A stretch of 64,000 nt of DNA, taken from positions 35,314,194 to 35,378,193 of the forward strand of contig CP136069.1 of the NCBI GenBank assembly GCA_032622095.1, read 5' to 3'. This document shows positions 1,707-22,034 of this stretch, in pieces (the stretch's first letter is position 1; the number at the start of each line of letters is the position of its first letter). The stretch comes from Siphonodentalium dalli. Taxonomy: Eukaryota > Mollusca > Scaphopoda > Gadilida > Siphonodentaliidae. A program made the position numbers and the translations under genes. The notes beneath the pieces are model-generated. The model saw only the letters and a program-made list of their open reading frames with translations, was not told where the DNA came from and searched no databases.

Positions 1707-1833
1707 GATCTATGATTGGTCCTAAGATAAACTGTGCGAGAGATGCCTTGGTGCTGTTTCTGAAGAGTTTGCCGAAGGGTTGCCACTTCAATGTGATCGG
1801 GTTTGGAAATAATTATGAAGTGATGTTTGAAGG
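1707..1833 (+). CDS. Gene A exon: VWA domain, first part
   Basis: The exon begins after TTTTAG and ends before GTACGT, phase 1 in and phase 2 out, 127 nt. It encodes [18 protein letters not shown] followed by [20 protein letters not shown]. This is the first helix and second strand of a VWA domain. SM is the second half of the MIDAS motif DRSGSM, whose first half must be on an upstream exon. The gene B exon at 63764-63890 has the same length and phases. Confidence 0.92.
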
Positions 1834-4800
1834 GTACGTTCTACACATCTGAAAATAACTCAATTTTGGTGCTCATTAATAAACTACTACCCAGTATATA
1901 CCTATATATATTTTTATGAATGTGCAAAATACGTCTTTCAATTAAGATGAGCCTTGGTTATTGGTAATCACCAACAGAAATACAAAGCTTGTCGAGATTT
2001 CAATTTGTTTATGTAACCACATTGTGCATACTATTCGAAAGCCATGCCGTTTCGAGAATTGTTTATTTGAGTAAATTAAATTCTCATTTTGAAAGCGAAA
2101 CGTCCAAATTTTTTACAAATGTGACCCGCCATATCAAATCCAGTCGTAAGTCGGGATTTTTTTACCCTGTGCCAATGCATTCTCTTATATATGCGAGTCG
2201 ACCATATATAAGAGAATGCATTGGCCTAACAATTTTTATCATTTTTTTTAAATAAATGTTTCTTACAATTTTTAGGACATAAAATAAAAAACATCCATTA
2301 CCCTGCAGGGAGCCCCATACATATATAGAAGCGTATAGAAGTGTGTTGTCTGCTCATGTTTGTCTGGGGCTCTGTATGGGTGAAATTATAAAATTGTTAA
2401 AGAATACAAGAAAAAATTATTAAAAGTGTAAAAAATTGTTAGGCCAATGCATTCTCTTATATATGCGAGGCGACCTATGGTCGACTCGCATATATAAGAG
2501 AATGCATTGGCACAGGGTAAAAAAATCCCGACTTACGACTGGATTTGATATGGCGTGTCACAAATGACCACCAGTCATAATGACATGCACATACAAACAT
2601 GCATCGGTCATGTGCACATTTTCAGCCTGTCATTGGCCGTGACCTTATTTCCAGGCTTGTACACATGCTAAAAATCTAACATTTTATTGAATTGATAAAT
2701 AGGCATCTCAACCAGGGAGGGTCTGCTGATTTTTTCCAGACACAAGGCGGGGGTGGGTGGGTATGTCGGGGCCGGAAAAAAATGAGTTACGCAAATTTGT
2801 TCCTACACTGAAATTTACTCATGTTAACCTTATACAGACTCTTATCTACATTCATTAATATATCATTTAGAACACATTTAACTCCAATATTTAAGTATGT
2901 TATTCGCTTATTGACCTGTCAAAATGTGATGCATGTGACTCCGATGTGAGTTGCGTGCCCCACATTTTATTTCGTAAACATGCCAGCTGTGTTTTTTTAT
3001 TTGTGCAATTTGCTGCATATTTGTTCTGGACACCGTTGATTGACAGTTTCAGAACATGCATGAACCTTTAACTATATTTTAACCTTTCCATGACTGGAGC
3101 TTCCTGAAATATTGCAAAAACCCTGTGCCAATGCACTCTCTTATATATGCAAGGCTCCCTATGAAAGATTCTCATATATAAGAGAAGGGCCCAGTTCAAT
3201 TCCAGAGGAACATTGTTGACTAGTTGTTTAACTAGGTATTCACATATTATCAATGACTGAGATAGCAATATTTTGTGTTAATATTTTGTAGTTGTCATTT
3301 GGTATCACTATAATCAATTTTAGTTTGATTATTTTCCAACAATATTGTTTGTCAATTCTGATAATTATGATGGCCATAATTGTTATTCAATTTACACTCA
3401 TGTGGCTTTCCAAAAAGAGATGCCGATTCCAGTTTGTACAATCTTGAATGTTAATTTCTAGCAATACTCATTGTTTTAGCGGCAGTCAGATTTACGATTC
3501 GCATAATCAAGAGATTGCCATCGACAGCAGCGAGCAGATCACAGCCAATTTGGGAGGCACCGATATTCAGAAACCTCTTGAACACATTTTCTCCCAGAAA
3601 CTCAATGATGGATTTCAAAGAGAGGTGAGCTTGATGTCGGCCCCAGAGAAGTCGGGGCCCCATGCGAAGTCATCCCTAGAGAAGTCAGGGCCCCATGCGA
3701 AGTCAACCCTAGAGAAGTCAGGGCCCCATGCGTAGTCAACCCATGCAGAGAAGTTGACCCCACTGAATGACAGAAACAATGCTTAAAATCTTTCTGTATT
3801 TATTTACGGGTATTAATAACAGAAAATGGGACAAAACACCCGCTATTTAATATCGACATCTATTATAACACGAACATGCAAAGGGTTGAATATGACAATA
3901 TAAGTTTCGATGTTTTGAGGCTAACTTCATTCAAAACTGTTCCAAAATGTAGGTGTGTTATTGTGGTATAAGAAAACATTGACCTTATCAAGTCACTTCT
4001 GAAAAATACTAAGGTTACATACCCTCAAAAACATGTACATTTTTTGTTCAACTTTTGAGCTATTGCCATGGGTTTGTCGTCCGTCTATCCAACAAAAATT
4101 TCCTTTAGCACACCCTACAAGCCATCCCTCATCTGATCGTCACCAAACTTGGAATGACTACAGATGAGAGCTTACCATTTTTAGCTCAACTTTAAAAAGT
4201 TTGTAAATTTTGAGCTATTGCCATGGCTTGGTATCCGTTGTCCATGTGTACTGCATGTGTGCGACTGTCAACAATTTCCTTTAGCACAGGCTACAGGTCG
4301 TACTTTGGTCGGATATCGTTATGAAATTTGTCATAGCTGTTGACATTGACATGTAGACGGGAACGAGTCATTTTGAAATTTGGGGTCATTCGGCAAAAAA
4401 ACATGGCCACCAGCGGTCATCTTGGATTTCAAAATTCAATCCATTAGCATGGGCTATAGGTCATACGGATCATCATGAAATGTTAACATTGACATGTAGA
4501 TGGGAACGATTCATTTTGGGGTCATTCGGGCATAAAACATGGCCGCTGGCAGCCATCTTGGATTTTACTCTTTGCATGACTAAATCCTTTGGCATGGGCT
4601 ACAAGTCGTACCTTTGGTCGGATCCTTATGAAATGGTTGTTGACATTGATATATAGATGGAAACGATTCATTTTGGGGTCATTCGGCAAAAAAACATGGC
4701 CGCCAGTGGCCATCTTGGATTTCAAAATTCAATTCATTAGCACGGGCTCAGGCCGGAGTGTTCATCTGATTATCATGAAATTTGTCGTGGATGTTATTAT

Positions 4801-7800
4801 TGACATGTTGATGGGAACAAGTCATTCAGCTATAAAACATGTCCGCCAGCAGCCATCTCAGACTCGGCCATCTTGGTTTATACTCTTTGCATGACTAAAT
4901 CCTTTGGCACGGACTACAAGTCGTATGTTTGGTCGGATCGTTATGAAATTTGTCATGGCTGTTAACATTGACATGAAGATGGGAATGATCATTTTGCCGT
5001 CATTCGGCAAAAAACCATGGCTGCCAGTGACCATCTTGGATTTCAAAATTCAATCCATTAGCACGGGGTACAGGCCGGAGTGTTCGACTCATCATCATGA
5101 AATTTGTCATGGATGTTAATATTGACATGTACATGCAGAGGGGAACGAGTCATATTGGGGACATATGGCCATAAAACATGGCCACCGGGCTTGTGTAAGA
5201 TCATCTCTAGATGGGAGCTATTGAATTTGAACAATTTTGATGAAAACATGGCCACTGGCAGCCATCTTGGATTTTACTCTTTGTATGACCAAATCCTTTG
5301 GCACACCCAACAAGCCACATTCCTGTCCGATTTTCAATGATTTCACTCTTTACATGAGCAGCGTGACTAAATTCGTCAGAACAATTTCAATGAAAAACAT
5401 GACCGCTAGTAGCCATCTTTGCATCACTGACTTCTTCGGGATGCATACAGTCATGCAGTGACCATCTTTGGTTTCACTTGTGAATCTTGGCCCACCCTTT
5501 AGCTCGCATTTAAATTTCAGAAAATTCACAGGCATGATTGGGATCATTGTATTTGCAATCATCAATTCAATCCCTTCATTATTCTTCATTCTTCAACTTT
5601 TTTTTAACCTTCCTTATTCATCCCATTAACTGAAATCTAAAACGTTTTTGAATTATTCTCTCTCCATGTTGAGCTACAGTCATTGACACTTTCATATTTA
5701 CCTCAACAAAACCATGAAGTAAAGCTCATTTGTCCAAATTACACTACATTGGATGTCTATTAATCCTGATTATTTGAATGATAATGCTGACAGAATTGTT
5801 CAACCTATTCCATACTAAATGGATTCTTCCACTCAGTTATAAAAATATACATTGATGGGTCTATACTTCATCTGGAGGGATGTTTTGGTAATAAAAGCAG
5901 ACGACAGATAACAAAAAGTGCTGAAGGAATTAAAGTGATGTGAAACACTCCGGTATGATGATCAAATAGAAATTGAGAACAATCTTGCTCAAATTAGTTA
6001 TTTGTTACGAATATTAATCAAAATTGACGATACACACCGTCATTCTTATATATTAATTAAATGCAATGACACCCGATGGCGAAATCATTTGTGTTAGATT
6101 AACGCCGATAATTGCATCCCGAATCAAGATGTAAATATTTACAATTGGGCATAGTTCAGATGATGTTTTCTATGGAGTAGTGTGGTCCATTTCTTTGAAA
6201 GTTTTGCCCATCTTAGTAGAATGCTACATTCCCCAGGTTGGAATAGCGCCTGAGTACTAACTTGTCAAATTCACGCACCCGAACAAGTCGATAATATGTC
6301 TTTAACGTTCAGATAATAAGTTCAACAAATGAGCTATGGTCATTTGTTGATCTATTATCTGAACATTTCCTAAGGGATAACTACTCGTCAATTAGTATTT
6401 ACTAGAAATGGGTTAAACTACGTGGCTTTAATTATTTGAGTGATAAAATTCATTCTTATTTTTTGTTACAGGTACTTGTGATAACAGACGGGGAAGTGTG
6501 GAATACTGATTCGGTTATCAGCCTCATAAAAAGAACGACAAATGCGAGGTGAATTAATTCATAGGCCTATTACACACCTGTTTGCATGAACCACACATTG
6601 AATATCAGCCATAACTACTTTGTGATGCCATTGTCACGATGTACTTAGGTTGATTCCACAATAGTTGACTTATATAGTTGTGGTACTTACAGTAATGCCC
6701 TAATTAATCGACTCCTTAACCACAGCATAATTATGGGTAACTTTTCAGGATTTAGTCGGAAATATGGCTTGTTGCCATTCATCGGAAAGCTCTCACAGAG
6801 CTTTCCGATGAATGGCAACAAGCCATATTTCTGACTAAATCCTGAAAAGTTACCCATAATTTGACTGTGGTTAAGGAGTCGATTATTTAGGGCATTACTG
6901 CAGTTATGGTAGTTAGACTATTCTGACAAATGACCATCTGTCATTACATATAATCCCAATAAAACTAAGTGACATATAATCTTAAAGCCTAGAAATCTAG
7001 TGGCGATATTCCCACAAACTCTTGTCATATCTAGTCCATATGACTTCATCATTGTCATATGTACCATCCTGTCTATGCCTGAAAGCAGGCATGATGGCAA
7101 AGATTCATACAAACTTTAATTGAGATCCGATAACCCATGGCTGGGATATATGTACCCACTTTTCACAGAAATATGGGGGGTATACTGGATTGACTTAATC
7201 TGTCTGTCTGGGCACATATATCCCAGTCATGGGTTATCGGATCGTAAAAAAAATTGTATGCATCTTCGCCATAATTCCTGCTTTCAAAAGAGGGGCAAAT
7301 GGAGTTCACATTCTCAATTCTAGAGTTACCCCCCCTCTTTGTTTATCTTGAAACCTTGTGTTTTTGTCCATATGTGCAGATATCTCAGCCATGGGATGTC
7401 AGATCTGATTGAAATTTGGTTTGGAAGTTTGCCACTATGACTGTTTTCAAAAGAGTGCCCAATGATGTTGTTTCATGCTCCGTTGTAGATTTATCATTCT
7501 TTGTTTATTTAAAATTTGTGTTTCGTCGTGCCTGTGTTTAAATTTGACACTGTGTTGCGTATTCCAGCACCCAAGGCAACATCTTGTGTTTTCTGAAGTA
7601 ACTATGAGTAAAATAATTTCACTCATATCCGAATGAGTACTTAGTAATGAGTACTTAGTACTCATGTCAACTTCAGAACCAGCATCAGTGATATACATAC
7701 ACACTCTACCAACCATTTTCTCTGCAAACATTTCAGGGTGTTCAGTCTTGGAATTGGCCACGGTGCCTCAACCTCACTTGTCAAGGGCATGGCTAGAGCT

Positions 7801-10800
7801 GGTCGTGGCAAGGCATATTTCGTGAAGGATCGAGAACGTATTCATGGGAAGGTGATTTGATAAGTTAAAAATGATTGTGATCCTGAAAAAATATAAGTAT
7901 TTTCTTTAAATATATCGATAATATATATTTATGATAACACATCGCAATACAAGATTCAAGGTTTCATACATGCTAAAGATGTTTTATTATGAGAACTGCG
8001 ATGTATTTCGGCGAAGTTGCATTCAGAGAGTTTTCTCCTAACGTGGCAAACTTCTAAAGCCGTGATAATAATTCATGATCAATTTGTGCTTGCCAAGTTT
8101 ATGCACGCACTCTATTGTTGCATGTCTAATGTGTTGTCATTGGGTTACCACGTGATCAATCATGTGATCATGCCAATCATGTGACTTTGGCTACAACACA
8201 AAATCTTCCGCAAACTTTAAAACTTTATTTAATCGTTATAAAAAATAAAATTAGCAGCCAAATTTTAGATTATATGAGCAAAATGGACATTTTAAAGTAT
8301 TTTACGTAAGTGTTCTCCTAAAAAAAATTACACACGAAGCCTTTTGAATATTCTACCACGATGTGTTAAGCTATTATTATATATTATTTTGGTTTTACTC
8401 ACATTTATCTACATGTGCTTGTGTTTCTTGCCTTTTCATTACCGAAATTGTCCAAGCTATATTATATATATTATATTATATATATTATATTATATATATT
8501 ATCGATAACTAATTGATCAAAACATAACTAATTTCCGTATTTACATCTTCGGAGATAATCAAAACCCTTTTTTTCACCTATTATATTATATATATTATAT
8601 ACGATTGCATACGAAGACTTGCAAAGTTATATATCTAGTATAGTGTTAGTTGATGATCTCGAAACATTCCGGTTTTCAAATGCTCTTACCCTGGTATTTA
8701 GTATAGAAAGGGTAATGTAGAATTGTTATTTAAGGTATATTGTTTGTTCATCTAAAATGTACTGACCATTTTTCCACAGGTTGTCAGCTTGTTGAAATGT
8801 GCAATGGCGACATCGGCTGATGTTTCAATCAAATGGGACCTACCCGAGGAGGAAATCCAGCCCATATTGATACCTGGAAGTATTCCGCCAATCTTTGATG
8901 GAGAGAGAACAATTCTGTACGCTCTGTTCGACAAGGTAGGTTTTATGCCCCCTCCCTGATTTTAGAACCAGCTTGTCCATTCATCTGTCTGCAGTTGCAA
9001 ATTAGTATTGTCTACGTTTTTTCATTCTGGTTATATATTTTTTTTTAACCTTTTTACTAAGTTATCACAGTTTTTCACTAGAAAAAACTTATTTGTAACA
9101 TCCATAATTTTGTCCAAGCTTTTATTCCTTTAAGTTTCAGTTAGTTGTTTTGAAACTTTCAAATAAATTGAATATCGTGGGAATTTGAGATTGATTGGAC
9201 TTATTTTCACGGAGTTATATGCCTGTTTTCAAAATGGGAGAACTTAAGTTAAACTGAACTTAACTGAACTAATAATGGGCTGAAATTTGGCATTTTGGTT
9301 TATTGCCACAAAATGCAGGAGGAATTCTATTTTGGGGGGTTGGTTTCCCATTTATACCAGAGTTACTGCCCTTTTTAACTAGACGAAGCCTCCGGTGGAG
9401 CTTTAGTCATCACTCCTCATCTGTCGTCCGTCCATCCATCCGTCAAGAATCGTCCACTTCAGAACCATAAGACTGAATAGGTTAATATTTAGTGTGGATG
9501 CTCCCCAGATTCTTCTCAAGAACCATTGTTTGTACACTTTGTTATGTAAACAAACATAAAAATATGTTACAGAACCATTTGTTTATAGATCAACACTCGG
9601 AACTACCAGATCGTCCAATAAAAATGTTCCGTTGCACTGTGGAAGGCGAAGATCAAACTATTGGAGCCATCAACAATCGCATTCAAATCACACCAAATTT
9701 TATTTTAATTGACCCATTTTACCCGCTGTCTATTCAAAATCCAGCTAATTCACGTTATTTCATGATTGGGAAATGATCAAACAGAAAGCGTTGTTCTTGC
9801 AAAGAGATGAATATTTTTCAATACAGTTAGTATTTTCTCCTAACCTATGGTAATTACGTCACATAGCAAATAAGGAATTTACTATGATAGTATTGTAAGT
9901 TGTAGACACACCAAATTATGAATTTGCAGATTTGTTCAATGAGAGGTAATTTTTTTCGCCAAAACCAATTACATATACTAAAATGAATATAAAATAATAG
10001 ACCATTGATCAATAGGAGGGAGCTCCTAGTTTTAATATTCACGAAATATATATTATTTTATAACAAGATATCATGGGGTGGGTTCTGGCTTCTGATGAGG
10101 AAAAAATTACACTGGAAACAATTTTTTTTGATAAGTTTCATTAAGCTTACATGATTGGTGTGGTTATTTAAAACCTTTCATACCCTTTGTCTGTTTATCC
10201 TACTGGTTTAACATTTAAATTTGATTATGAACTACCTGTAGAATCAGTTCCTGATAACATACACTTTTCAGACTTAAACAAATCTGCTGATGTTTGTTAT
10301 TGTAATACAATTTTTTGTCTTCCAACAAATGTTCACATATGGTGCACATATAAATGTCAACATCTGAATCAGGTTTGCTCAACTGGGATTGGTTATTCAA
10401 GAAGAGGCAGAAATTGCAGATTTAATACTCTTTAATTAATTGAATTAAGAATGTGTTTCTATGTCAGTGAATACTTTTAAGTTCTAAGCTGAATTTATTT
10501 GCTCTAACTACTTATTTTGAAGTAAATTTGACAAATACTTACTCTTTTAGTCTTCAGAGTCCCAGTCTTCTCAATCTTTACAGTCAGGTGAGCGACTCCA
10601 CAGTCATTGACTGTCTTGTTTGAAATTTGGCTCAATTATTTTTCTGGATGATAACTTCAGTTCACGTCGACTGAATGTAATGAAATGTAGTGTGCAGATA
10701 TAAAACCATAAAATACATACTCAATTTTGGTTTCTGTCCGCCCTTTTATACCATACATGTAGTTATGGACATTTTTCAAGTTCGTGTTTTCTTGGTTTCT

Positions 10801-13800
10801 GGACAATAGCTCAAGTTTATAGCGTTGCTAAATAGCCACCACATAGTCAGGAGGCAGGTCAGATATACATTTGATATGTGGATAAAGAGGCTCAAAATAA
10901 AAACTTATTAATCAGGGATTTGTGCACTGATAATTTTGTCAAGAGTAATGAGCTTTTTTTAATATAATAATTTAATATTATTGGTTTTCAGATGATAACT
11001 CCACCTGTTTAGCTTACCTTCTTAAATTCACATTGAAACAGGCCAATGGGCAAATTATTCCACGCCTGGCAGTGCTATTGTTTAGAAATGTTTTGCAACA
11101 CTAATAACTTTAATCAATCATGGCATTTAAATTTCAGCCTCTCACTCAGGATGTTGCTGTAAGCCTGATAGAAAAAGTTGGTGCAAAGAGTTCTGAACAC
11201 AAATTAATAATAAAGAAAGACAGCGGCCTTGCCCATGCATCCTTACCTATCCACCGACTTGCTGCAAAAATGAATATCAAAGATCTAGAAGGTTAGAGGA
11301 ATCTATTTCACTTTTAAATCTTCTACATTTCAACTCGACTCTCCTTGTCATGGTTTTGGCACTGAGACGAATGAAAGATGCGAGAGCCGAACATATGCCC
11401 CAATCAATAAGGCCAAAAATAAACTGAAGCTGTGTTTCTCCTACCCTGACCGAAAGTTGATCTTTGAAATTTGACTTCTATAACATTGTCGATGGATTCT
11501 ATATGAACTATTTTTGGTCAAGTTGTAAGATTTGATGATGGTTGGTAGGTGTGGTCGTTTGCCTGTCTGTATCAGAATGCAAGCCTTGAAATAGTGTGTC
11601 TATCATTTGCAGGCTAGCATCACTAAATTCACCATCTGGAGGGCCTCATTCTGCTTAGGCCTCATCTTCTGGGAAGTATGTGTAATCTCAAATTAACATT
11701 GCTTCAGTTACCTTCTGTTTCTATATCCTCTAATTTTCAGAAGATAACATGCATAATCGAGGTGGCTAATGGGTGAACATGACCAACTTCAACTGCGGAA
11801 CTTCAATCTATGTCTAGGTCTCCCATAGCAGTTGAGGCCTAAGCATAATGAGGTTCTCAGAGGGTGAATTCGGTGATGCCAGCGGGATAGCGTCTCTAAA
11901 TTTACCCTCTGGGGGATCTCATTCTGCAAATGACAGACACACTATTTCAAGGCAGCGCTTGTCGCAATGACGCCACGATAATGAGCCAGATACTGATTAT
12001 CGCCCTTTGAAGGAGACATGTTCTCGTCGTAAAAAGCCTGCAGTTTTCATAAACTTTTTTGTCTTCTTTCAGATGATGGTAAAGAAATATTGAAGGAGGA
12101 CATCATACTGTCTAGCTGTGCCGCAAACATTATCTCATCTTATACATCCTTCGTTGCTGTTGATAAATCTAGTGAAGTCAATGGAGAAATTATTTCTCTC
12201 AATGTACCCAGGGTTCGTACTAATGGAAGTATCAATAAATATATATACAGTATATAGGTCACACCAGTCATTTATGTTGATAAATCAAAGGAAGTCGGTA
12301 GAGAAATTGTATCTCTCAATGTAGCCAGAGTTCATACTGTTGTATGTATATACAGTAATGCCCTAAATAATCGACTCCTTAACCACAGCAGAATTATAGG
12401 TAACTTTTCAGGATTTAGTCGGAAATATGGCTTGTTGCAATTTATCGGAAAGCTCTCACTGGTTCATCAAATTTGGTTGTGCTGTCGTATGTTTGTAGCC
12501 AATTTTAGGAGGAAAGCATACCCACTTCTTGCATTTAGAAAAAATTTCCATCCATACAATTATTTATTATTGCCCACTCTCTAAATTGAGCATCGCTTGG
12601 CATTGCACTTGTTCAATGATTGTTCCCAGAATCACATTTTTCATTTAGAAAAAAGTCACCAGTCAAATAAAGCCACCTTATTCGGGGTATGGTGGCCAAG
12701 CAGTCCTTTTTATCCGAATTAACATAATTTTTGACTTATAAAGTTTTGAAACCTTATAGTTTTGTCAGTCATTCGAAATAGTCGGTTTCTGGAAGGTTAT
12801 GGACATTATATGACTAATGGTGGTAACTTATTACAGCACTGAAGAGAGGGGTAGCAAATTATGAGATCCAAACAATTAATATACATGATATATACCCAGA
12901 ACGACACATGTGTGGTAATGGGTTTGTTGATACAGCACGAGTGTCTGTGTGGAAGGATAAAATGAGAGGCTTCCGCAATGGCAGAAGTGCCGTATCGACA
13001 AACGAATTAACACATGGATCGTTTTGTGTTTATTACACGCCACCCATCCTAGAATCCTTGAATTATGAAAAATAGACTTAGAAAGTTGTGACATCAACTG
13101 AATGCATATGCCACACGTGGGTCATACAGATTTATAAATATGGCATGGCACGAACACTGTAACTCTATGAACTAGCGTGTAATAAATGCTCTGTTATTAT
13201 CAGTCTAAATAGTGAACCCACTCTATAAAACAGCATCACGTTCGATGGTCTGAAACATTCTGTTATCTACAGCTGTATATCGCTTTCCCCAGATTGTGAT
13301 GGCACCGCCCATTTTTTGTATTAACCCTTTCATGACGGAAGCTGCGCTGGTGCAGCATTAAAGGCCCTGTGCCAGTGCATTCTCTTATATATGCGAGTCT
13401 CCCATAGGGAGCCTCGCATATAAAAGAGAATGCACTGGCTTACAAGATCAAGGTAAATATTGTTTAGCCAATGTATTCACTTATATATGCATTTTTATAG
13501 GTGCTTCACAAGAGTGGCTTAAACATACCCAACAACCAGGTCCCTATTTCTCGTCTAGGTACGACGATGCGAGCACAGTACAAGTGACCTTGCCCAAGGG
13601 TCACAACCTGGTGCGAGATTTTAAACAGAGTGTGGCTATATATAGCACACTCACCACTTAATCCGGCCAAGCCACTGTTGTGGAGACGATAGTCAACCGG
13701 CGGTGCACGAACTCATGCCTGTGCTTAATTGACACCATTACAAGTCCGACACTTCTAAACGCTTGGCTACCACTTCCACTATTGTTCAAACAAGCATTGA

Positions 13801-16800
13801 AATAGTGTGTCTGTCATTTGCAGAATGAGGTCACCAAATTCACCCTCTGGGAACCTCATTCTGCTGAGGTTTGAACTGCTATGGGAGACACCTAGGATCA
13901 GGTTGAAATTGGTTATGTTCACCCACCTCTATTATGCATTTTATCTTCTACAAATTAGGGAATAATGGAAACTGAAGAGGGGAAAATTAACTAAACACAA
14001 TGTTAATTTGAGGCTGTAGATACTTCCCAGAAGATGAGGCTTAAGCAGAATGAGGTCACCAAAGGGTGAATTTAGTGATGCTAGCCCGCTATTTCAAGGC
14101 TTGTGTTCAGATTGTGTTATTATTCATATATGTTTTCTTGGGTGCAATTTATTTGTGCATGCATAAATATATTTAACTATATTGTTCTTTTCAGGTGACT
14201 AAAGCTCAGTTTGGAGCTTGGGCTGCTGCCCCTACAGTTTTCCATCCACCAAATCGCACAGATAGAAAACCATTAAAAGGTAAATTATAGTTTAAACAGA
14301 GTATGTATAGGAGGTGAACATACTCTGTTGAGTAAGTTATTCAGAGATTTGAACATGAAAACAGTTTGTAAATGAGAGTTCTCATGCCAGAATCTCTGAA
14401 TATCCAACAAACCATGGTACTCCAAAAAATATAAAAGAAAGTTCACAAAAAAGAAAAGTGCTTTGTATAGCACTACATGCTACAAAGTGAGATCAAGCCT
14501 TGAAATAGTGTGTCTGTCATTTGCAGAATGAGGTCCCCAGAGGGTGAATTTAGTGATGCTACCCCGCATAGCGGGCTAGCATCACCAAATTCACCCTCTG
14601 GGGACCTCATTCTGCTTACACCTCAGCAGAATGAGGTTTCCAGAGGGTGAATTTGGTGATGCTAGCCCGCTATGCGGGGTAGCATCACTAAATTCACCCT
14701 CTGGGAACCTCATTCTGCAAATGACAGACACCCTATTTCACGGCTTGAGTGAGATGTCCTTTTCCGGTACGTTCTATGGTGTTACTCGGAACAGTGCCGA
14801 AACAACTTCCAGACTCTGTATCTATTGTAAGCAACTTTGTGCTTGCGTTTGATTATATGATTCATGGCGACGTCTGTACTGCATGTCATTACACTGTTTC
14901 ACTGACCTACCTGTATTATCTGAGGCAAAGATAACTGCTGGATACCAGATATAAGCTAATGTCTGCATTGTAAATATCGGCAGAAATTGTATTTATTCAT
15001 CTACACCAATGATTTGTGTGATCAGTAATATCTTGAAAATGCAAATAGTTGTATTGTATGCATATTTACCATCACAAGCACAACAGTCACAAGGACTTTT
15101 AATGAAGTATAGGTAAAGTTAGCATTTTCCCATTTAGATATATTTATCCTTTGTCTCCCCTGTCCAAAAATTTTCGGCGGGGGATTTAGGAATGGATTCT
15201 GTCCGTCTGTCTGTCTGTTCGTCCCAAAAAAATTCCGGGGGTTATTTCCAACCATTATCAACAGATTGATAACCATAGGGGTTAGTCAGCACCGGACTTG
15301 CTACCTCTTTTTATCTTTAATGTGACGGAAATATACAGAATGACACGAGTGTGCTAATGGGTTTGTTGATACGGCACGAGTCTTCAGCCTCGAGTTCTAT
15401 CCTTCAGTGATGGCAAAAGTGCCTTATCGACAAACCCATTAACACAGGTGTCGGGCTGTGTTTATCACATACCCACCGTCCTAGAATCCATGAATTTAAA
15501 AAAACAGACCTGCAAGGTTTATTCAGGCACATCCAGATCTTGATTTGTCATGTGTGATGATGCTATTATTTTATTGTTCCAGTTTCATGGTTAAAGTATG
15601 GCAAGCCGTTTTCACATTTTCGATTGATTTAGACTTAAGTCCAATTATTTGGACTTAAGTCCAAATAATTGGACTTAAGTCCAAATAATTGGACTTAAGT
15701 CCAAATAGCGAATTGGACTTAAGTCCAAATACCACATAATTGTGAATTCGGCGAGGAATTGGACTTAAGTCCAATTGATTTGGACTTAAGTCCAAATACC
15801 GATATTTTCATCTATTTGGACTTAAGTCCAATTCCTCGCCGAATTCACAATTATGTGGTATTTGGACTTAAGTACAATTCATTTGGACTTAAGTCCAATT
15901 CATCTGTATAAGAAACACCCCCATCAGATATTAAGCAGGTCTGGTTTTGCTCATAGGGCGGAGTTGTGGGAAAATGGCCGTTTACATTTGGGTCTAATTC
16001 TTGTTGATCTTGTTAATTGTTACCTTTCTCAACATATATAATGAATCAGCTCGATGTGGACCAGATCAAATATAAGACACTTAGTAAATGCAATAAACGA
16101 AACTGCGTGTAGCCTACACTACATGCTGTCAAATAACAATTGAATCAAGTCGTGAATTAATTTTACTTCATTCATGCATGCAGTTAGCATTTATTAAGAT
16201 GCCAATTCGGATTCGAAACATTTTCAATCTCGGCATGCCGAAAACAAGCCACGTGGCAAAGGGGACGTACGGAGTTAGTCTTGGAGTCAGGAATGCCCTG
16301 GTTAGTACGAAGTTTGACTGTCAATCAAAACTTGCAGGAATATACCGTTACAAAGAAGGGGACTATCGTTTCAAACCAGATGAATTGGACTTAAGTCCAA
16401 ATGAATTGGACTTAAGTCCAAATCAATTCACTAATTGGACTTAAGTCCAAATAATTGGACTTAAGTCCAATTGATTTGGACTTAAGTCCAAATCAATTCG
16501 CTAATTGGACTTAAGTCCAATTCATTTGGACTTAAGTCCAATTATTTGGACTTAAGTCCAAATAATGGACTTAAGTCTAAATCAATCAAAAATGTGAAAA
16601 CGGCTTGCCATATTAAAGCAGACATCATTGACGTCGTGTGACGGCAATGGGATGCATGTTCCGTATAGGAACTAGGGATCTGTGAATCAGGGATTTTGCA
16701 TCGAATCAAATCTCGATATCGAATCTCCTTCCTGATATCGACATCGAATCTCGAATCGAATCAGATAGCGATTGACATTGTCTACCATTGTGTATTTCGG

Positions 16801-19800
16801 TGTCTCATATGATGCATTTAATTTCTATCTAGCTGTTTCATGGCGAACATGACACAAGAAGTGACAGTAAGACACTTGAAGACAGTTCACTCAACGTATC
16901 ACAAATCCCATGGAATGAAAGTCACTTGTCTACATTATTTAATAAAGATAATAAAGATTTGACACTAGTGGACATGGGTACACCGTTCAGCTATATGATT
17001 GTTGTAGTCCGATACCAATGGTTACTGGTAGTTATCTGTTAAACTGTTCGCCCCACAATAGTTTAAACACCTACATCACATATTCACAGTAGTTGTCTTC
17101 ACAGAGGGGGTGCCAGAAAACAGACACAAGTGTTAAATGTTATCATCAAGATTCAACGGATCGAAACTTGGTGCAACGCACTCGATTTCTCGGGAAACAG
17201 AAACTGAAAATAGGAAATATATAGGAATTCTGTCGGCAGTGTGGCAGAAAACTGGTCGCACATGATAACGTCCATTTAAGAACGTAATAGACCGATAAAA
17301 AAGCATGCCTTCCCTTGACCACAACTAAAGTCCGTAACCTATCATGGCTATTATTTGAAGTGTATGCTATTGAGACAGAGTTTCGCTGAATGGAATTTGG
17401 TTCCATTGTCTCTTGGGTGTCAATAGTTATGGCCCCTTATCAAGGCCTGACCTAGGCCATTTTTACCAAGCCGGTACACTGGGATTGGTGACATTAGTGT
17501 TTGGGTGCCCTAACAAACTTTACTTTGTAGATATCAACTACCAATAATGACCTTCCTCCCAGTTGATTTAGGCCAGATGATAATTTATTGCTAGATTGGT
17601 CACACAATAGCGTTATAATAGAAATGGGTGTGTTATAATTAGTCAGATTTTATTGCCAAAAACATCGCAAATCGAAGGTAGAGGTATAGAGATCATTAAA
17701 AAACACAGAATTAGCCTGCGATGAACCGGATTCTTGAATACCTGGACCATTAACAAATAATTTATGTACCAACAGAAAAAGAATGGTACATCGACAAACT
17801 GGAAGCTTTCTTGTCAGTAATCAACAATGTCTGATTGAAAACGAGTACCCACCATAACATAACATAAGTATAAACAAATAACTCACAATAAACAGGAATA
17901 TTTTGAATGTGTCTTGGTTTTTCATGCTAATTTTTGTTCGATTTAGTCTAGTATTGTACTTATTATACGCCCGTTTGAAAAAACGGTCGTATTATGTAAA
18001 TGGGTTGTCCGTCCATCTGCTTTTGGTTTCCGGATGATATCTTTAGATTGAATGAAGTGAACTGAACCAAATTTGGTATGTTAGTTTACCACACCAGAAT
18101 ACAGATCAAGTTTGAATATGGGTTTCGTCCACATGATTTTGACTGAGTTATGCCCATGCTCATGAGTTATGCCCCTTTTTCGACTTAGATTTTATTTTTG
18201 TTATTATTTCGTCTTAAGTCAAAGGTTTCAAACAAATGAATTAAACCTTGCCCAACTCTACGCCAGAAACGGGCGCATTATGCCACGCCCCAACGGCGTG
18301 CTCTTGTTTGTAAGTTTACATCTGCAAAATTTTAAATTCAAAATACCTAGACCGAAAACATCCGGAATCAGTCACATTAAGACATCAAGAACTGGCAAAT
18401 TGTAACCCATGCTTTGACAACTATGCTTCAAGTTGACACTAGCACAGGTCTGTGTTAAAATTTATGTTTCGTTTGGTGTAAAATTATGGTATTGGTGAAT
18501 AACTAATGATATATAATTTAATTATTACATTTCTATCGTGTAACTTATAAGCCAAGGTCATATTTATAAATAGTTTGGTTTCTACTCTCCCACCCATATT
18601 TTTCAGACAGGGTAGGTAGAACATTTATTTGCATTCAAAGGTGTATGCAATTTATGCATAATATTCTTCTCTCTATTTCCCAGGTAACTCAAGTATCTTT
18701 GTAAGGACACTAACTGGAAAGACACTCACTATTGGTGTCAAAGATAATGACACGATCGATGATGTCATGTCTAAAATCCAGGATACGGAGGGCATACCTC
18801 CAGATCAGCAGAGACTCATATTCTCCGGACAGCAATGTGTCAAGGGTGGATTATCACTGGAAGATCACATGATCGGTCATGAAGACACAATACATCTAGT
18901 TCTTCGTCTGAGAGGAGGTGGCGGTGAAATTCCACCAAAAGGTATATTGAAACAACTCAAATTTTCAGGCCTTTTTTAGACTGATTTTGAAAGCTTTTTC
19001 CAATGAAATATATTACATGTATGACATAAAGTAGATCGCTACATTTAAGATGTTACAAATATTTGCTGATCCTCATACTATACATTGGAATGGTCTGTTC
19101 TTCATTTCTAGGGATGTTTTTATAATATGAGCAGACGACAGTCAGAAAAAATATCCCTGATATTTCTCCTTGAATTCCCATTCATTTATTTATTGGGATG
19201 TCCATAAATAAGCTTAGCAAACACCTCGTCAGCTAGTATTCAGTTAGCAAAGGGTTAAATGAAGTGCTCCATCTTGAATATTCATTAGCCATCATTTAAA
19301 TAGTCAATATTACATTAAGACCAAGAGAAAATAAAATGAAAACACCACCCCTCCCAAAAACACAGGTATAATTTTTTTTGGACTAGTCGTTTTTATATAA
19401 GTTTCTAAAGTATCTCTCGTATGTGCCCATATAAGGCTGCATATTATTTTTTTCATCCAAAACACTTTTTTGAATCGCTTACATTGATTTTTTTTATTTT
19501 TCAGAGCCATTCTCACCTCAACAAGCAGGTAATTACATTCATAATAATATATTTACTGTCCTACAAGCATTCGTGTTGTGAAACATGGAATGGAGGATGT
19601 AGGTTGGTTGAAGTCACATTAAGCAACATCACGTTATGTCATGTTACGTCACATCATGTTATGTGATGTCACATTATGTGACATCATGTTATGTGATGTC
19701 ACGTTGCATGCAAGCCCCAACTTGTTTGTTTTCATATTGCATGGATGCAACTTACAACGTGATACTAGAAAAATCGTTCAAACTGGCACCAAATTCTCCT

Positions 19801-22034
19801 TTAATCTGCATTGTGCTGTGTTGTGTGTAAATCATTCAAACTGGGCACCAAATGCTCTTTTAATCTGCATGTTGTGTGTAAATATTAGAAAGGGAAGTTG
19901 ATTATGTTTTGGGTTCAACACAAAATGTCAGACCAACTTGCATCCATGCTCCATGGATCACAACAAAATCAGCATCCATTACTTAAATGAATATCATAAA
20001 GTTAACAATCAAAGAGCTTTAGAAATGCCAAACAGTTTGCATATGAAATAATGAATACTTCCTGCTCAATGTGCATGTGTCAGTTTTGAATAAATGTATG
20101 AATTCAAAACTGAACAAAAAAATAGTACAGAGTGAATTTACGAGTAAGTTATTGTGATGAAGACTATAGTCAGTGATGAGCTCGGACTCGCTCTGTATGC
20201 TGCGTCCAGGTCACTGAACCTATTGGAAAGCCTGACAACAACTACGGACGTTGTTCATTTCAGGAATTTGCGATATCAGTTTGCAATAAACTGTCGAACA
20301 TTCAGCATTGTGACACTTTGTTAGCATTCAAGCAAGCACTCAAGCCTGCAAATATTAATCTGTCATTTGCAGAATGAGGTCCCCAGAGGGTGAATTTTGT
20401 GATGCTACCCCGCACAGTGGGCTAGCATCACCAAATTCGCCCTCTGGCGACCTCATTCTGCTTAGGCCCCATCTTCAGGGAAGTATATGTAGTCTTATAT
20501 TAACCCTTTGAGTGCCAGGTCCGATTTTTGTATCAACCCATATACCCTGTGCCAATGCATTCTCTTATATATGCGAGTCGACCATAGGTCGCCTCGCATA
20601 TATAAGAGAATGCATTGGCTTAACATTTTTTTTTTTTTTTTTTTTTAACAATTTTTTACAATTTTAATATATTTTATTATATTCTTTAACAGACTTATTG
20701 TGTAGGTTTAGGGCCGATAATATCGGCCCCTGGCACTCAAAGGGTTAACATTGTTTTTAATTACTTTTTCCCTTCTCTTCAGTTTCTATATCTCTAATTT
20801 GCACAAAGAAGATAAAATGCATAATCAAGGTGACTAATGGGTGGACATCACCTACTGCAACTGGTGAACTTCAAATTGATCCTAGGTCTCCCATAGCAGT
20901 TGAGGCCTAAGCAGAATGAGGTGCCCAGAGGGTGATGCTAGCCTGCTTTGCAGGATGGCGTCACTAAATTCACCCTCTGGTGACCTCATTCTGCAAATGA
21001 CAGACACTATTAATTTTGCAGCTTTGCAAGCACTGAAAACACATCTTTTCCATCTTTGTTTCAAACCTGATCATAAGCAAATACAGAACAACAGTATGCA
21101 CTTGTTAGTTTCAACACTGATGTTTTCCTTCAATGACTTTCACTGAATTTTAATTATCTTGATTAGACTGTGTACAGTTTTAATGATGCCAATATTTTAT
21201 CTCTTTCTCCATATTTTAAATTTCTTGGTTGTTGTTAACCAATTGTTATATTGTGTCTTCGGGAAGCCTTTTTTATGTCACACGTATTGAAACTAATTGT
21301 TGTTTAATGCGTTTTTCAATGTATGCATAATAATAATAATAATTTTATTGCAGCGATACCAGATGCTGAGTACATGCCACTAGTTAAATTACAGACATTT
21401 GATGGATTTTGGAATCTAAACAAGGATCTCGCTGATGCAATTAAGTGTTCTCTTGAACATTTGAAAGAAAATCACAAATGTTCTGTAAGTATAAAGTTTC
21501 ATATGCTGAGAATTATCCGAAGCATTTTTCAATGTAAATCGTTATCCTAGTGATTCATTTGTATGCACTGACGAAGGAAAATTTTCCCAATAGTGCATTG
21601 TGAAGTTCATCTATTTTATGTTAAAAAAAGAACCATGTAAACTGCTATATATGAAGTAACTCCTCTTCACGGACAGCAATTACAACAACAACAAAAGTTT
21701 TGGACAGACATGTTTTAGCTTTTCAAAAAACTCTGTTATCATCTGGTCTCACACATGTTTGACTTATGAGTGATTGAAAAGAAGGACTTAAATTTTCCAC
21801 ACAAATCACCAAATCGGTTATCAGTTGCATATGTGAGTAACCTGCACTGTTTGTTTGCAGACTGATATGATCTGGGCAACATGTTTGGCCATCGCATATC
21901 TAAGGAAGGCGTATCCTGCTGAGAAGAATGAGTGGCAGCTGATTGAGAAGAAGGCAATTGATTGGCTGAAATCGCTGGATTCTTCTGTCAATATTGACCC
22001 TGTCATCACAGAAGCCTTAAGGGTTCTTTCCTAA
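1707..22034 (+). CDS. VWA domain-containing protein 5A-like gene with internal ubiquitin-like domain (gene A, 5' partial)
   Basis: Fourteen exons are proposed: 1707-1833, 3480-3624, 6472-6548, 7737-7851, 8780-8935, 10551-10587, 10992-11071, 11138-11291, 12073-12212, 14195-14279, 18684-18941, 19512-19535 (approximate), 21354-21484 and 21861-22034. They join into one frame of 567 codons including the stop, and every phase fits. The product runs from the VWA domain just after DRSG, through the VWA5A middle region (motif IHRLAAK), a ubiquitin-like domain, and the VWA5A C-terminal region ([10 protein letters not shown]). Family knowledge: VWA5A proteins are intracellular VIT-VWA proteins of unclear biochemical role, and human VWA5A was described as a candidate tumour suppressor. 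The ubiquitin-like domain is not part of the usual VWA5A layout as I know it. The VIT exons and DRSG exon should lie upstream of the window. No bacterial-style operon applies; the downstream paralogue is gene B. Confidence 0.88.
2121..2561. mobile_element. MITE with GTGACC termini and two internal hairpins
   Basis: Inverted repeats of about 60 bp begin GTGACCCGCCATATCAAATC and end in the complement. AAAT lies on both sides as a 4-bp target duplication. Each arm holds the long hairpin with core GCATTCTCTTATATATGCGA. A second copy is at 41150-41606. Confidence 0.8.
3079..3190. mobile_element. Partial TTAA-type MITE with hairpin module
   Basis: TTAACCTTTCCATGACTGGAGC starts the copy, followed by a decayed hairpin of the GCATTCTC type. 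The right end is missing. Confidence 0.6.
3480..3624 (+). CDS. Gene A exon: VWA domain, MIDAS threonine
   Basis: Acceptor TTGTTTTAG, donor GAG|GTGAGC, 145 nt. It encodes a segment ending [16 protein letters not shown], which fits the VWA5A motif LGGTEI, where the threonine is the third MIDAS element. The frame stays open past the donor for 36 more codons, through a 33-bp minirepeat. Confidence 0.9.
3632..3760. repeat. 33-bp tandem minirepeat after the donor of a gene A exon
   Basis: About 3.5 units of a GAGAAGTCAGGGCCCCATGC-containing 33-bp sequence, starting some 15 bp past the splice donor at 3625. The unit is a multiple of three and reads EKSGPHAKS(S/T)L in the exon frame, until a TAG at 3733. 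Confidence 0.85.
4040..5560. repeat. Degenerate tandem repeat, units of about 135-165 bp
   Basis: Repeated blocks contain ACATGGCCGCCAG, CCATCTTGGATTT, GGTCGGATCGTTATGAAA and TTGACATTGACATGTAGATG in order; CCATCTTGGATT recurs about six times between 4420 and 5275. Short related pieces recur near 36770-36870 and 47740-48000, so the family is dispersed. Confidence 0.75.
5790..6420. repeat. Dispersed repeat copy (TACTAAATGGATTC family)
   Basis: Contains the family blocks ACTAAATGGATTCTTCCACTC, ATACATTG, CATCTGGAGGGATGT, GCAGACGACAG and, near 6305-6370, a TTATCTGAACATTTCC block. Relatives lie near 19085, 25870, 39360, 41620, 42168, 48065, 50570 and 63680. Consensus ends resemble TTAACCCTTTC, so it may be another TTAA element. 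Confidence 0.5.
6472..6548 (+). CDS. Gene A exon: VWA domain, TDGEV strand
   Basis: Acceptor TTTGTTACAG, donor GCGAG|GTGAAT, 77 nt, phase 0 in and 2 out. It encodes [20 protein letters not shown], the central strand of a VWA fold with the conserved TDGEV aspartate. Confidence 0.9.
6690..6900. mobile_element. Tc1/mariner-like palindromic MITE
   Basis: Near-perfect palindrome of 211 bp beginning CAGTAATGCCCTAA and ending GGGCATTACTG, with TA before it. It could fold into one long hairpin. Other copies: 36926-37106 (complete), and fragments at 12353-12463, 39187-39318 and 42762-42812. Confidence 0.75.
7123..7246. repeat. Inverted repeat (hairpin) around 7123-7246
   Basis: GATCCGATAACCCATGGCTG near the left and CAGTCATGGGTTATCGGATC near the right form arms of about 30 bp with a loop of about 60 bp. 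Confidence 0.6.
7737..7851 (+). CDS. Gene A exon: VWA domain, GIG segment
   Basis: Acceptor ACATTTCAG, donor AAG|GTGATT, 115 nt. It encodes [20 protein letters not shown] and then [38 protein letters not shown]-like sequence is very typical of VWA5A. Confidence 0.92.
8456..8602. repeat. TATTATATATATTATAT simple repeat
   Basis: Two blocks of AT-only repeat with the ~17-bp unit ATTATATATATTATATT, separated by unique sequence. Confidence 0.8.
8780..8935 (+). CDS. Gene A exon: end of VWA domain and following region
   Basis: Acceptor TTTCCACAG, donor AAG|GTAGGT, 156 nt, phase 0 at both ends. It encodes [20 protein letters not shown], then [20 protein letters not shown], then [12 protein letters not shown]. 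This corresponds to the VWA5A segment with the motif (W)xLP and the FxGxRxxxYA stretch after the VWA domain. Confidence 0.9.
10551..10587 (+). CDS. Gene A exon: short serine-rich linker
   Basis: A 37-nt exon between TACTCTTTTAG and GTGAGC encoding [12 protein letters not shown]. Its support is partly indirect. Joining exon 8780-8935 straight to 10992 would meet a stop after six codons, whereas inclusion of this 37-nt exon puts 10992 in an open frame that also matches the frame of 11138. Confidence 0.6.
10992..11071 (+). CDS. Gene A exon: middle region (3' boundary uncertain)
   Basis: Acceptor TTGGTTTTCAG. It encodes [17 protein letters not shown], reminiscent of the VWA5A strand around CLKYTLQG. 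Two 3' ends keep the frame: a GT donor after 11071, or a GC donor after 11041. The exon is needed to link the neighbouring phases, but its end is not certain. Confidence 0.55.
11138..11291 (+). CDS. Gene A exon: VWA5A middle region with IHRLAAK
   Basis: Acceptor AATTTCAG, donor GAAG|GTTAGA, 154 nt. It encodes [15 protein letters not shown] and continues to [18 protein letters not shown]. The IHRLAAK motif is a hallmark of VWA5A-family proteins and of the related region in vault PARP (PARP4). Confidence 0.88.
11581..11953. mobile_element. MITE of the AAGCCTTGAAATAGTG family
   Basis: Begins AAGCCTTGAAATAGTGTGTC and ends in the complement near ACACTATTTCAAGGC. It contains AGAATGAGG and CACCCTCTGG hairpin arms and a spacer with CTTCTGGGAAG and TGGGTGAACATGACC. 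Confidence 0.7.
12073..12212 (+). CDS. Gene A exon: VWA5A region with [11 protein letters not shown]
   Basis: Acceptor TTCTTTCAG, donor CCCAGG|GTTCGT, 140 nt. It encodes [20 protein letters not shown], then [18 protein letters not shown] and a short tail. It matches the family motif (S)FTAFVAV(D/N)K. A diverged second copy of the 3' part of this exon lies 117 bp downstream. Confidence 0.87.
12260..12345 (+). pseudogene. Diverged duplicate of the 3' part of gene A exon 12073-12212
   Basis: Frame reading [20 protein letters not shown] lies 117 bp (39 codons) after the matching [20 protein letters not shown] stop (TAG at about 12254) separates the two copies. It has no clear acceptor in the right phase, so it is probably a relic. 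Confidence 0.6.
12353..12463. mobile_element. Fragment of the CAGTAATGCCC palindromic MITE
   Basis: Left half only, from TA|CAGTAATGCCCTAAATAATC to GGAAAGCTCTCAC. Confidence 0.7.
13321..13497. mobile_element. Partial TTAA-type MITE (CCCTTTCATGAC) with hairpin module
   Basis: Starts TTAACCCTTTCATGACGG, followed by GTGCAGCATTAAAG and a full hairpin with arms around GCATTCTCTTATATATGCGA. The right half is decayed and no right end is found. Confidence 0.7.
13791..14102. mobile_element. MITE of the AAGCCTTGAAATAGTG family
   Basis: CAAGCATTGAAATAGTGTGTC at the left and GCTATTTCAAGGCTTG at the right, with the internal spacer in the opposite order to the copy at 11581. Confidence 0.7.
14195..14279 (+). 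CDS. Gene A exon: linker before the ubiquitin-like domain
   Basis: Acceptor GTTCTTTTCAG, donor AAAAG|GTAAAT, 85 nt, phase 0 in and 1 out. It encodes [20 protein letters not shown] and then RTDRKPLKG. Proline- and charge-rich, with no domain recognised; probably a flexible linker. Confidence 0.75.
14495..14746. mobile_element. Short, nearly symmetrical MITE of the AAGCCTTGAAATAGTG family
   Basis: Two successive hairpins with AGAATGAGGT...CACCCTCTGG arms fill the element. The spacer found in long copies is missing here. Confidence 0.75.
15597..16612. mobile_element. Element with TTGGACTTAAGTCCAA palindrome clusters
   Basis: TATGGCAAGCCGTTTTCACA at the left is mirrored at the right end (TGTGAAAACGGCTTGCCATA); terminal repeats are about 45 bp. 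TTAAAG is present on both sides (15591-15596, 16613-16618) as a probable 6-bp target duplication. About ten palindromes lie at 15630-15900 and about nine at 16380-16580. The middle has a short open frame (16178-16444) that I do not recognise. It lies in a gene A intron. Confidence 0.8.
16619..18683. other. Gene A intron with dispersed repeat pieces
   Basis: Near 16690-16760 is a short repeat of ATCGAATC-type words, similar to 48790-48860. At 17960-18307 is a repeat whose ends are inverted (ACGCCCGTTTGAAAAAACGG and CCAGAAACGGGCGCATTATG). Nothing else recognised. Confidence 0.4.
18684..18941 (+). CDS. Gene A exon: complete ubiquitin-like domain
   Basis: Acceptor ATTTCCCAG, donor AAAAG|GTATAT, exactly 258 nt, with phase 1 introns on both sides. 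It encodes a whole ubiquitin fold from [13 protein letters not shown] through [18 protein letters not shown] to HLVLRLRGG, followed by GGEIPPK. In ubiquitin numbering it keeps Leu8, Ile44, His68 and Val70 (the binding patch), Lys11 and Lys29. Lys6, 27, 33, 48 and 63 are replaced by R, M, T, Q and H. One residue is inserted around position 54. The RLRGG end is internal, not terminal. An in-frame ATG at 18767 is inside the domain and is not a start codon. Confidence 0.93.
19512..19535 (+). CDS. Gene A candidate 24-nt micro-exon
   Basis: Between TTATTTTTCAG and GTAATT lie 24 nt that encode EPFSPQQA when joined to the phase 1 ends on both sides. Being phase 1-1, it can be included or skipped without breaking the frame. 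Support is only the two splice sites and the frame; position accurate to a few bases. Confidence 0.45.
19610..19710. repeat. Short ATGTGATGTCAC repeats
   Basis: About eight words of the type CATGTTATGTGATGTCAC or their complement, palindromic around TGTGACATCA. Confidence 0.65.
20342..21025. mobile_element. MITE of the AAGCCTTGAAATAGTG family, with a nested MITE
   Basis: Hairpins at both ends (AGAATGAGGT arms at 20373-20462 and 20913-20998) and the long internal spacer. The spacer is interrupted by a TTAA element at 20500-20748. Confidence 0.7.
20500..20748. mobile_element. piggyBac-like MITE (TTAA, CCCTTTGAGTGCCAGG) nested in another MITE
   Basis: TTAACCCTTTGAGTGCCAGG at the left and CCTGGCACTCAAAGGGTTAA at the right: 16-bp perfect inverted repeats with TTAA duplications. 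It encloses one hairpin of the GCATTCTCTTATATATGCGA type. TTAA targets and CCC termini are piggyBac characters. Confidence 0.8.
21354..21484 (+). CDS. Gene A exon: VWA5A C-terminal region, part 1
   Basis: Acceptor TTTTATTGCAG, donor TCT|GTAAGT, 131 nt. It encodes [20 protein letters not shown] and then [17 protein letters not shown]. The family signature LVxLQxxDGxWxLxxDLA is clear. This confirms that the protein returns to VWA5A sequence after the ubiquitin-like domain. Confidence 0.9.
21861..22034 (+). CDS. Gene A last coding exon: VWA5A C-terminal region, part 2
   Basis: Acceptor TGTTTGCAG, 174 nt ending in TAA at 22032-22034. It encodes [20 protein letters not shown], then [20 protein letters not shown], then a short tail. 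The WAT-(alternating hydrophobic)-WEL(I/L)E(R/K)KAxxW pattern is the normal end of VWA5A proteins. Confidence 0.92.
   Translation, partial: TDMIWATCLAIAYLRKAYPAEKNEWQLIEKKAIDWLKSLDSSVNIDPVITEALRVLS

What the first reader, a model, noticed from the sequence alone, without database searches (positions are those of the whole stretch)
18684..18941. A whole ubiquitin-like domain spliced into a VWA5A-family protein
The sequence shows a 258-nt exon encoding a complete ubiquitin fold, with good splice sites. Its phase joins VWA5A middle-region exons upstream and VWA5A C-terminal exons downstream. The usual VIT-VWA-C-terminal layout has no ubiquitin domain as far as I know. The exon is phase 1-1, the classic signature of exon shuffling. 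A protein that pairs a protein-binding VWA domain with a built-in ubiquitin mimic might recruit ubiquitin receptors or the proteasome to its ligand.
Basis: partly seen in the sequence, partly recalled or inferred. Interest (0 to 1): 0.88.

Follow-up and report, generated by a model that had tools for sequence, protein, structure and literature searches.

The report
Ubiquitin-like domain inside a VWA5A protein
In this animal genome a complete ubiquitin-like domain, still ending in the LRLRGG sequence at which ubiquitin is normally cut free, is one exon in the middle of a VWA5A-type protein, just ahead of a C-terminal domain that has been proposed to hold such proteins inactive; mussels have the same layout, so it looks like a real, so far undescribed protein type whose processing can be tested.

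Summary
Window 18684-18941 is a 258-nt, phase 1-1 exon encoding a full ubiquitin-like domain (Pfam ubiquitin E=1.7e-19; 64% identical to the animal's own ubiquitin). It lies in frame inside a VWA5A gene: VIT, VWA, mid region, UBL, conserved C-terminal domain (CTD). A near-identical second copy and three divergent paralogs in this genome carry the exon at the same place; the paralogs add a second, degenerate UBL. Of 207 listed relatives, 5 have a UBL, all Mytilus (four species). Seven literature searches showed no paper on it. On the VIT-VWA tree the window gene and the Mytilus UBL genes do not group: two gains at one spot, or one gain with losses or gene conversion. The domain keeps LRLRGG followed by glycine and the ubiquitin contact surfaces (recalled set), and sits in the loop before the CTD that a published model proposes as autoinhibitory. 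Best hypothesis: an internal, deubiquitinase-cleavable ubiquitin that releases the CTD. The close rival is an uncut ubiquitin mimic. Transcripts, cleavage and structure could not be tested.

The parts
1707..1833 (+). VWA5A exon: VWA domain, MIDAS region (DRSGS spans the junction with the exon upstream of the window)
3462..3624 (+). VWA5A exon: VWA domain (LGGTD)
6472..6548 (+). VWA5A exon: VWA domain (TDGEV)
7737..7851 (+). VWA5A exon: VWA domain ([19 protein letters not shown])
8780..8935 (+). VWA5A exon: mid region
11138..11291 (+). VWA5A exon: mid region (LPIHRLAAK)
12073..12212 (+). VWA5A exon: end of mid region ([10 protein letters not shown]); 3' end uncertain, weak donor
14195..14279 (+). 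linker exon ([28 protein letters not shown]), enters in phase 0, leaves in phase 1
   Evidence: in the sequence the other two frames of the exon start with a stop
18684..18941 (+). ubiquitin-like domain exon, phase 1-1, ends [13 protein letters not shown]
19505..19528 (+). possible 24-nt phase 1-1 microexon (EPFSPQQA); splice sites and frame only
   Evidence: one search had it one base off
21354..21484 (+). C-terminal domain (CTD) exon 1 ([20 protein letters not shown]), phase 1 in, 0 out
21861..22034 (+). CTD last exon with TAA stop ([32 protein letters not shown])

Best explanation
SHOWN: the window gene is a VWA5A-family gene whose mid-to-CTD linker carries a complete ubiquitin-derived domain as a phase 1-1 exon. 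The same genome has a near-identical second copy and three more divergent paralogs with the same exon. The window UBL keeps the hydrophobic patch (Leu8, Ile44, His68, Val70), Arg42, Gly47, Gln49, Arg72, Arg74 and LRLRGG, followed by Gly, while several chain-forming lysines are gone (K48Q, K63H). INFERRED: it is a built-in, cleavable ubiquitin. A deubiquitinase recognises the UBL and cuts after LRLRGG. This frees the CTD, which a published model for Vwa1 and VWA5A places on the VWA domain as an autoinhibitor, and leaves a VIT-VWA-UBL protein ending in Gly-Gly. That end might then be charged by E1 and conjugated, or dock on ubiquitin receptors or E3 complexes. About 0.95 sure of the architecture; about 0.4 of the processing mechanism.
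For: Architecture: in-frame GT-AG exons; Pfam VIT 4e-32, VWA_3 3.2e-20, ubiquitin 1.7e-19. The second copy at C9:145.70 Mb has the identical UBL exon; 4 mismatches in the 12 window exons (1605 nt), while the six main aligned DNA blocks over the gene are 96.6-99.3% identical. In three minus-strand paralogs mid exon, UBL1, UBL2 and CTD sequence lie in order, and two of them (g377, g563) splice in frame from the mid exon to a stop. Selection: between the window UBL and the paralog UBLs synonymous sites are saturated (pS 0.85-0.96), amino-acid sites are not (pN 0.305-0.344). Cleavable tail: 13 of 13 chosen deubiquitinase/E1/patch residues kept in the window UBL against 36 of 63 other positions, p=0.0017; 7 of 9 UBLs tested have p<0.01; LRLRGG is kept in 8 of 9 and Gly follows in all 9. 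Position: PMC10539598 (abstract, section 22, part 1 of 2 of section 23 read) describes a disordered loop before a CTD predicted to bind the VWA domain, and Vwa1 co-immunoprecipitating with the F-box protein FbxwD and CulE.
Against: No transcript, protein or cleavage data. The 13-residue set is recalled knowledge, and those residues are conserved in many ubiquitin relatives, so their retention is compatible with plain ubiquitin mimicry. Two of nine UBLs (g475 p=0.31, Mgal2 p=0.2) do not pass the test, and Mgal2 has LRLCGG. The nine UBLs are related, not independent. If cutting were complete, the CTD would be lost from every molecule, and keeping the CTD would need a separate reason. UBL1 of g475 and g563 shows dN/dS 0.93 (0.55 and 0.38 for the other two paralog pairs), so constraint there may be weak; of the 4 exon differences between the two near-identical copies 3 change an amino acid, none in the UBL. 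VIT matches assigned to g475 and g563 each hold one TAA, perhaps beyond the exon end; not checked. No structure could be predicted.
Confidence: 0.4

Rival explanations
1. Uncut ubiquitin mimic: the UBL stays internal and serves as a docking surface (Ile44 patch) for ubiquitin receptors, an E3 complex or the proteasome, or binds the protein's own VWA/CTD. This is.
For: Leu8, Ile44, His68 and Val70 are kept in the window UBL. VWA5A-type Vwa1 associates with SCF components in Dictyostelium (PMC10539598). The window UBL is already 36% different from ubiquitin, with a one-residue insertion.
Against: Does not by itself explain LRLRGG followed by Gly in 8 of 9 UBLs. From general knowledge (no call), well-known internal or N-terminal UBLs such as those of Parkin or RAD23 do not keep a cleavable diglycine tail.
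Confidence: 0.38
2. Drifting passenger: a ubiquitin exon landed in a permissive linker, is tolerated, and is slowly decaying with no function.
For: The linker is variable in the family (52-302 aa between two motifs in the 82 of 208 proteins where both motifs were found). UBL2 in the paralogs and the UBL of one M. galloprovincialis protein are degenerate. dN/dS for UBL1 of g475 against g563 is 0.93.
Against: Window against paralog UBL: synonymous saturation with pN only 0.305-0.344. Functional surface kept in 7 of 9 UBLs beyond the rest of the domain. The same place is occupied in two lineages that do not group on the tree.
Confidence: 0.13
3. Gene-model or splicing artefact: the exon is a separate ubiquitin-like gene or is rarely spliced in.
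For: No RNA evidence was available. The exon is phase-symmetric, so skipping it also leaves an open VWA5A frame. The paralog UBL1 exons do begin with a Met codon.
Against: No Met at the exon start in the window copy, and it needs splicing at both ends. Repeated in one near-identical copy and three paralogs with the same acceptor and donor phase. Predicted Mytilus proteins P0011 and P0017 are continuous VIT-VWA-UBL-CTD; P0036 and P0073 are shortened at the N terminus and P0079 at the C terminus but keep the junctions around the UBL.
Confidence: 0.06

Closest known systems
VWA5A-like proteins of Mytilus with a ubiquitin Pfam domain (P0011 M. californianus, P0017 M. trossulus, P0036 and P0079 M. 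galloprovincialis, P0073 M. coruscus)
   Same: VIT, VWA, mid region, internal UBL, CTD in the same order (complete in P0011 and P0017; P0036 and P0073 lack N-terminal parts, P0079 the end of the CTD); P0011, P0017, P0036 and P0073 end the UBL in LRLRGGG
   Different: 40-41% identical to the 808-aa model for the four aligned (P0079 not aligned); their UBLs are 35-51% identical to the window UBL; their VIT-VWA part groups with other Mytilus VWA5A genes, not with the window gene
VWA5A (BCSC-1) and Dictyostelium Vwa1
   Same: VIT, VWA with MIDAS, mid region, linker, CTD (PMC10539598 parts read)
   Different: The parts of the paper that I read describe a disordered loop, not a UBL, between the last VIT strand and the CTD
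Ubiquitin fusion proteins, including internal ubiquitin in Bigelowiella and Guillardia (PMC6332867, passages only)
   Same: A ubiquitin domain built into an unrelated protein
   Different: The partners named in the passages I saw are not VIT-VWA proteins; I did not read the full text
Ubiquitin and ISG15-type precursors (recalled, no call)
   Same: LRLRGG followed by further residues, the form that processing proteases act on
   Different: Here a large N-terminal VIT-VWA part precedes the UBL, and a CTD, not a short tail, follows it

Membership tests
VWA5A family | VIT domain | tested here: met
   PF08487 4e-32 in the model of the 145-Mb copy; for the window copy a VIT match lies upstream of the window at C9:35190911
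VWA5A family | VWA domain with MIDAS (DxSxS) | tested here: met
   PF13768 3.2e-20; DRSGS in the spliced model of the 145-Mb copy
VWA5A family | CTD at the C terminus | tested here: met
   aligns to the Mytilus proteins; the paralog CTD exons match scallop, oyster, amphioxus and salamander VWA5A C termini
VWA5A family | intracellular, no signal peptide | not tested
   first coding exon not found
Ubiquitin domain (PF00240) | match over the curated cut-off | tested here: met
   69.8 bits in the whole model, 75.2 for the exon's own translation P0001, cut-off 25.4
Canonical ubiquitin | seven lysines including K48 and K63, near-invariant sequence | tested here: not met
   64% identical to the animal's own ubiquitin; K48Q, K63H, K6R, K27M, K33T
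Processed ubiquitin fusion | LRLRGG followed by further, non-proline residues | tested here: met
   window [12 protein letters not shown]; also 7 of the 8 other UBLs compared, the exception being LRLCGG in Mgal2
Processed ubiquitin fusion | cleavage by deubiquitinases after the second glycine | not testable with these tools
   needs a biochemical assay
Tandem UBL modifier (ISG15/FAT10 type) | two UBLs ending in a free or processed diglycine | tested here: not met
   one UBL found in the window gene; in the paralogs UBL2 follows UBL1 but lacks a diglycine

The most novel reading that the evidence does not exclude
A bivalve-like VWA5A has twice independently taken up ubiquitin in the hinge before its autoinhibitory CTD, turning the protein into a deubiquitinase-triggered switch: cutting after LRLRGG releases the CTD and exposes a conjugatable VIT-VWA-UBL 'giant modifier'.
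Probability: 0.15. Interest if true: 0.9.

Novelty: new variant of a known kind. Interest (0 to 1): 0.62.

Why it matters
VWA5A/BCSC-1 relatives are found across eukaryotes, yet their cell function is described as poorly understood (PMC10539598). A natural version with ubiquitin wired in front of the proposed autoinhibitory domain links the family to the ubiquitin system by sequence alone and makes the autoinhibition idea testable: does cutting after LRLRGG release the CTD? It would also be a case of ubiquitin recruited into one spot of one family, perhaps twice.

Tried and rejected
Nested ubiquitin gene or polyubiquitin fragment: judged unlikely; no Met in the window copy, splice sites and frame on both sides, repeated in paralogs.

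UBL at the C terminus of the paralogs (stop soon after LRLRGGGG): dropped after one search showed a GT after the glycines in all three and joined UBL1 to UBL2 and the CTD in frame in two of them (g377, g563). For g475 the mid exon, UBL1, UBL2 and first CTD exon were located but not joined, and its last exon was not found in the fetched stretch. Without RNA an unspliced short form is not excluded.

A shared single origin with Mytilus: holding the window gene (145-Mb model) with the Mytilus UBL genes, including P0113 and P0122, which nest among them but show no UBL, is rejected, p-AU 8.0e-6. The group was tested after the tree was seen, the window branch is long (0.97), and gene conversion inside lineages could give the same result, so an old gain with losses is not excluded.

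An extra exon at window 10205 was considered and dropped: no fitting acceptor, and 8935 to 11138 joins in phase 0. A structure of the Mytilus protein was wanted (alignment A2) but the tool was busy and then switched off. A genome-wide count of CTD exons did not complete. One search read the wrong file names (repeated); the own-ubiquitin row was taken from the wrong strand and replaced; one search had the microexon one base off (mended).

Papers (held open library only): searches found no paper; others (20 of 22 listed; 9 of 9; 10 of 61; 10 of 14) showed none whose title or abstract start describes a VWA5A-type protein with a ubiquitin domain. Only PMC10539598 (parts) and PMC6332867 (passages) were opened.

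Full report
What is there. Exon 18684-18941 encodes a full ubiquitin-like domain (UBL) and is phase 1-1. Twelve exons in the window, one of them an optional 24-nt microexon, join without a stop from the VWA domain to a TAA at 22032-22034. Five exons further 5', with the VIT domain, lie upstream of the window; I read them in a near-identical copy at C9:145670500-145707999. The two stretches of the window copy that I fetched match that DNA as well, but lie about 113 kb further apart, in an intron; the DNA between them was not read. The 808-aa model used in all later searches is that of the 145-Mb copy; it has VIT, VWA and ubiquitin Pfam matches in that order. The first coding exon was not found, and the donor after 12212 is weak.

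Is it more than chance. The Pfam match is 69.8 bits against a cut-off of 25.4. The best solved relatives are ubiquitins (best 60 of 336 shown). The second copy has the identical exon. Over the 12 window exons (1605 nt) the copies differ at 4 positions, 3 of them changing an amino acid, none in the UBL; the six main aligned DNA blocks over the gene are 96.6-99.3% identical. Between the window UBL and three paralog UBLs synonymous sites are saturated (pS 0.85-0.96) but amino-acid sites are not (pN 0.305-0.344); among the paralogs dN/dS of UBL1 is 0.38, 0.55 and 0.93.

The same genome has more. Three minus-strand loci on C9 (UBL at 145377141, 145475190 and 145563659) are 49-55% identical to the window UBL. 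All three have the VWA5A mid exon upstream, a UBL1 with phase-1 acceptor and a GT after the glycines, a second degenerate UBL without diglycine, and CTD sequence downstream. UBL2 of g377 passes the Pfam cut-off (34.8 bits); those of g475 and g563 were found only by similarity to it. In g377 and g563 mid exon, UBL1, UBL2 and both CTD exons splice in frame to a stop; for g475 the last exon was not found in the fetched stretch. Seven VIT matches that start at profile position 1-3 lie at C9:145.06-145.73 Mb, and four UBL1 hits lie in the same interval; pairing them by order and distance, four of seven genes have a UBL. That pairing is inference, and two of the seven VIT matches (145523848, 145630760) hold a TAA that I did not examine.

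Relatives. Three homolog searches list 120 of 1508, 120 of 1564 and 120 of 374 hits, together 207 distinct proteins. Five of 207 have a ubiquitin domain, by Pfam and by a profile built here; all five are from Mytilus (four species). The unlisted hits were not seen, so wider occurrence is not excluded. The UBL lies between the mid region and the CTD, as in the window gene. The listed relatives without it include other Mytilus VWA5A proteins, unionids, scallops, oysters, Haliotis, Octopus, amphioxus and vertebrates.

History. A tree of 52 of these 207 proteins and the window gene (145-Mb model; UBL and CTD left out) puts the Mytilus UBL genes with other Mytilus VWA5A genes (100/100) and the window gene elsewhere, in a poorly supported group (87/87) with the bivalves. 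A clade of window gene and Mytilus UBL genes is rejected, p-AU 8.0e-6; the test was made after seeing the tree and the window branch is long. Between the three groups (window, paralogs, Mytilus) each UBL is closer to canonical ubiquitin than to any UBL of another group: window 64%, paralogs 72-75%, Mytilus 58-63%, with one at 40%. Two gains at the same spot, or one gain followed by losses or gene conversion, both remain open.

How it may work. A Dictyostelium study (PMC10539598; abstract, section 22 and part 1 of 2 of section 23 read) says the VWA5A-type CTD is joined by a long disordered loop and is predicted to bind the VWA domain, suggests autoinhibition, and reports that Vwa1 co-immunoprecipitates with FbxwD and CulE. 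The UBL sits in that stretch. It keeps the Ile44 patch, Arg42, Gly47, Gln49, Arg72, Arg74 and LRLRGG, followed by glycine, but has lost K48 and K63. Of 13 such residues, recalled as deubiquitinase, E1 or receptor contacts, 13 of 13 are kept in the window UBL against 36 of 63 other positions (p=0.0017); seven of nine UBLs give p<0.01; g475 (p=0.31) and Mgal2 (p=0.2) do not. The nine are related and not independent, and the same residues are conserved in many ubiquitin relatives. So the sequence fits a ubiquitin that can be cut at its tail, which would free the CTD. It also fits an uncut ubiquitin mimic. I put the two nearly level and slightly favour cutting because a cleavable tail ahead of a conserved domain needs a reason to be kept.

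Novelty. The parts are known and the combination is already in Mytilus database entries; seven answered literature searches, some with capped listings, showed no paper that describes it. I rate it a new variant of a known kind.

Noticed in passing
window 15629-15898 and 16385-16561: 18 copies (up to 1 mismatch, 0 expected) of the 16-bp palindrome TTGGACTTAAGTCCAA in two clusters inside the intron before the UBL exon.
   Followed up: partly
window 48133-63885: A second VWA5A-type gene (VIT exons near 48133-48363 and 49199-49441, VWA exon at 63781) runs off the window end; no ubiquitin match was listed near its near-identical copy at 145.73 Mb.
   Followed up: partly
C9:35.19-35.49 Mb against C9:145.15-145.73 Mb: Three VIT loci appear with equal or nearly equal scores in both blocks, and the window gene's copies are near-identical; the 35-Mb copy has about 113 kb extra in an intron. 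Misplaced haplotype or recent segmental duplication.
   Followed up: partly
L042/L057, L043/L055, L044/L056: The three paralogs encode a second, degenerate UBL (phase 1-1 exon in the two that were spliced, no diglycine) between UBL1 and the CTD.
   Followed up: yes
P0028, P0037, P0060, P0123, P0122: Other Mytilus (or, for P0028, unnamed) VWA5A relatives carry a synaptobrevin (PF00957) or C1q (PF00386) Pfam domain; domain add-ons may be common in this family.
   Followed up: no
window 13830-14730 and 20350-21010: Hairpin-like mobile-element remnants with the repeated motif GCAGAATGAGGTC...GAGGGTGAATTT in introns of the gene, seen by eye.
   Followed up: no
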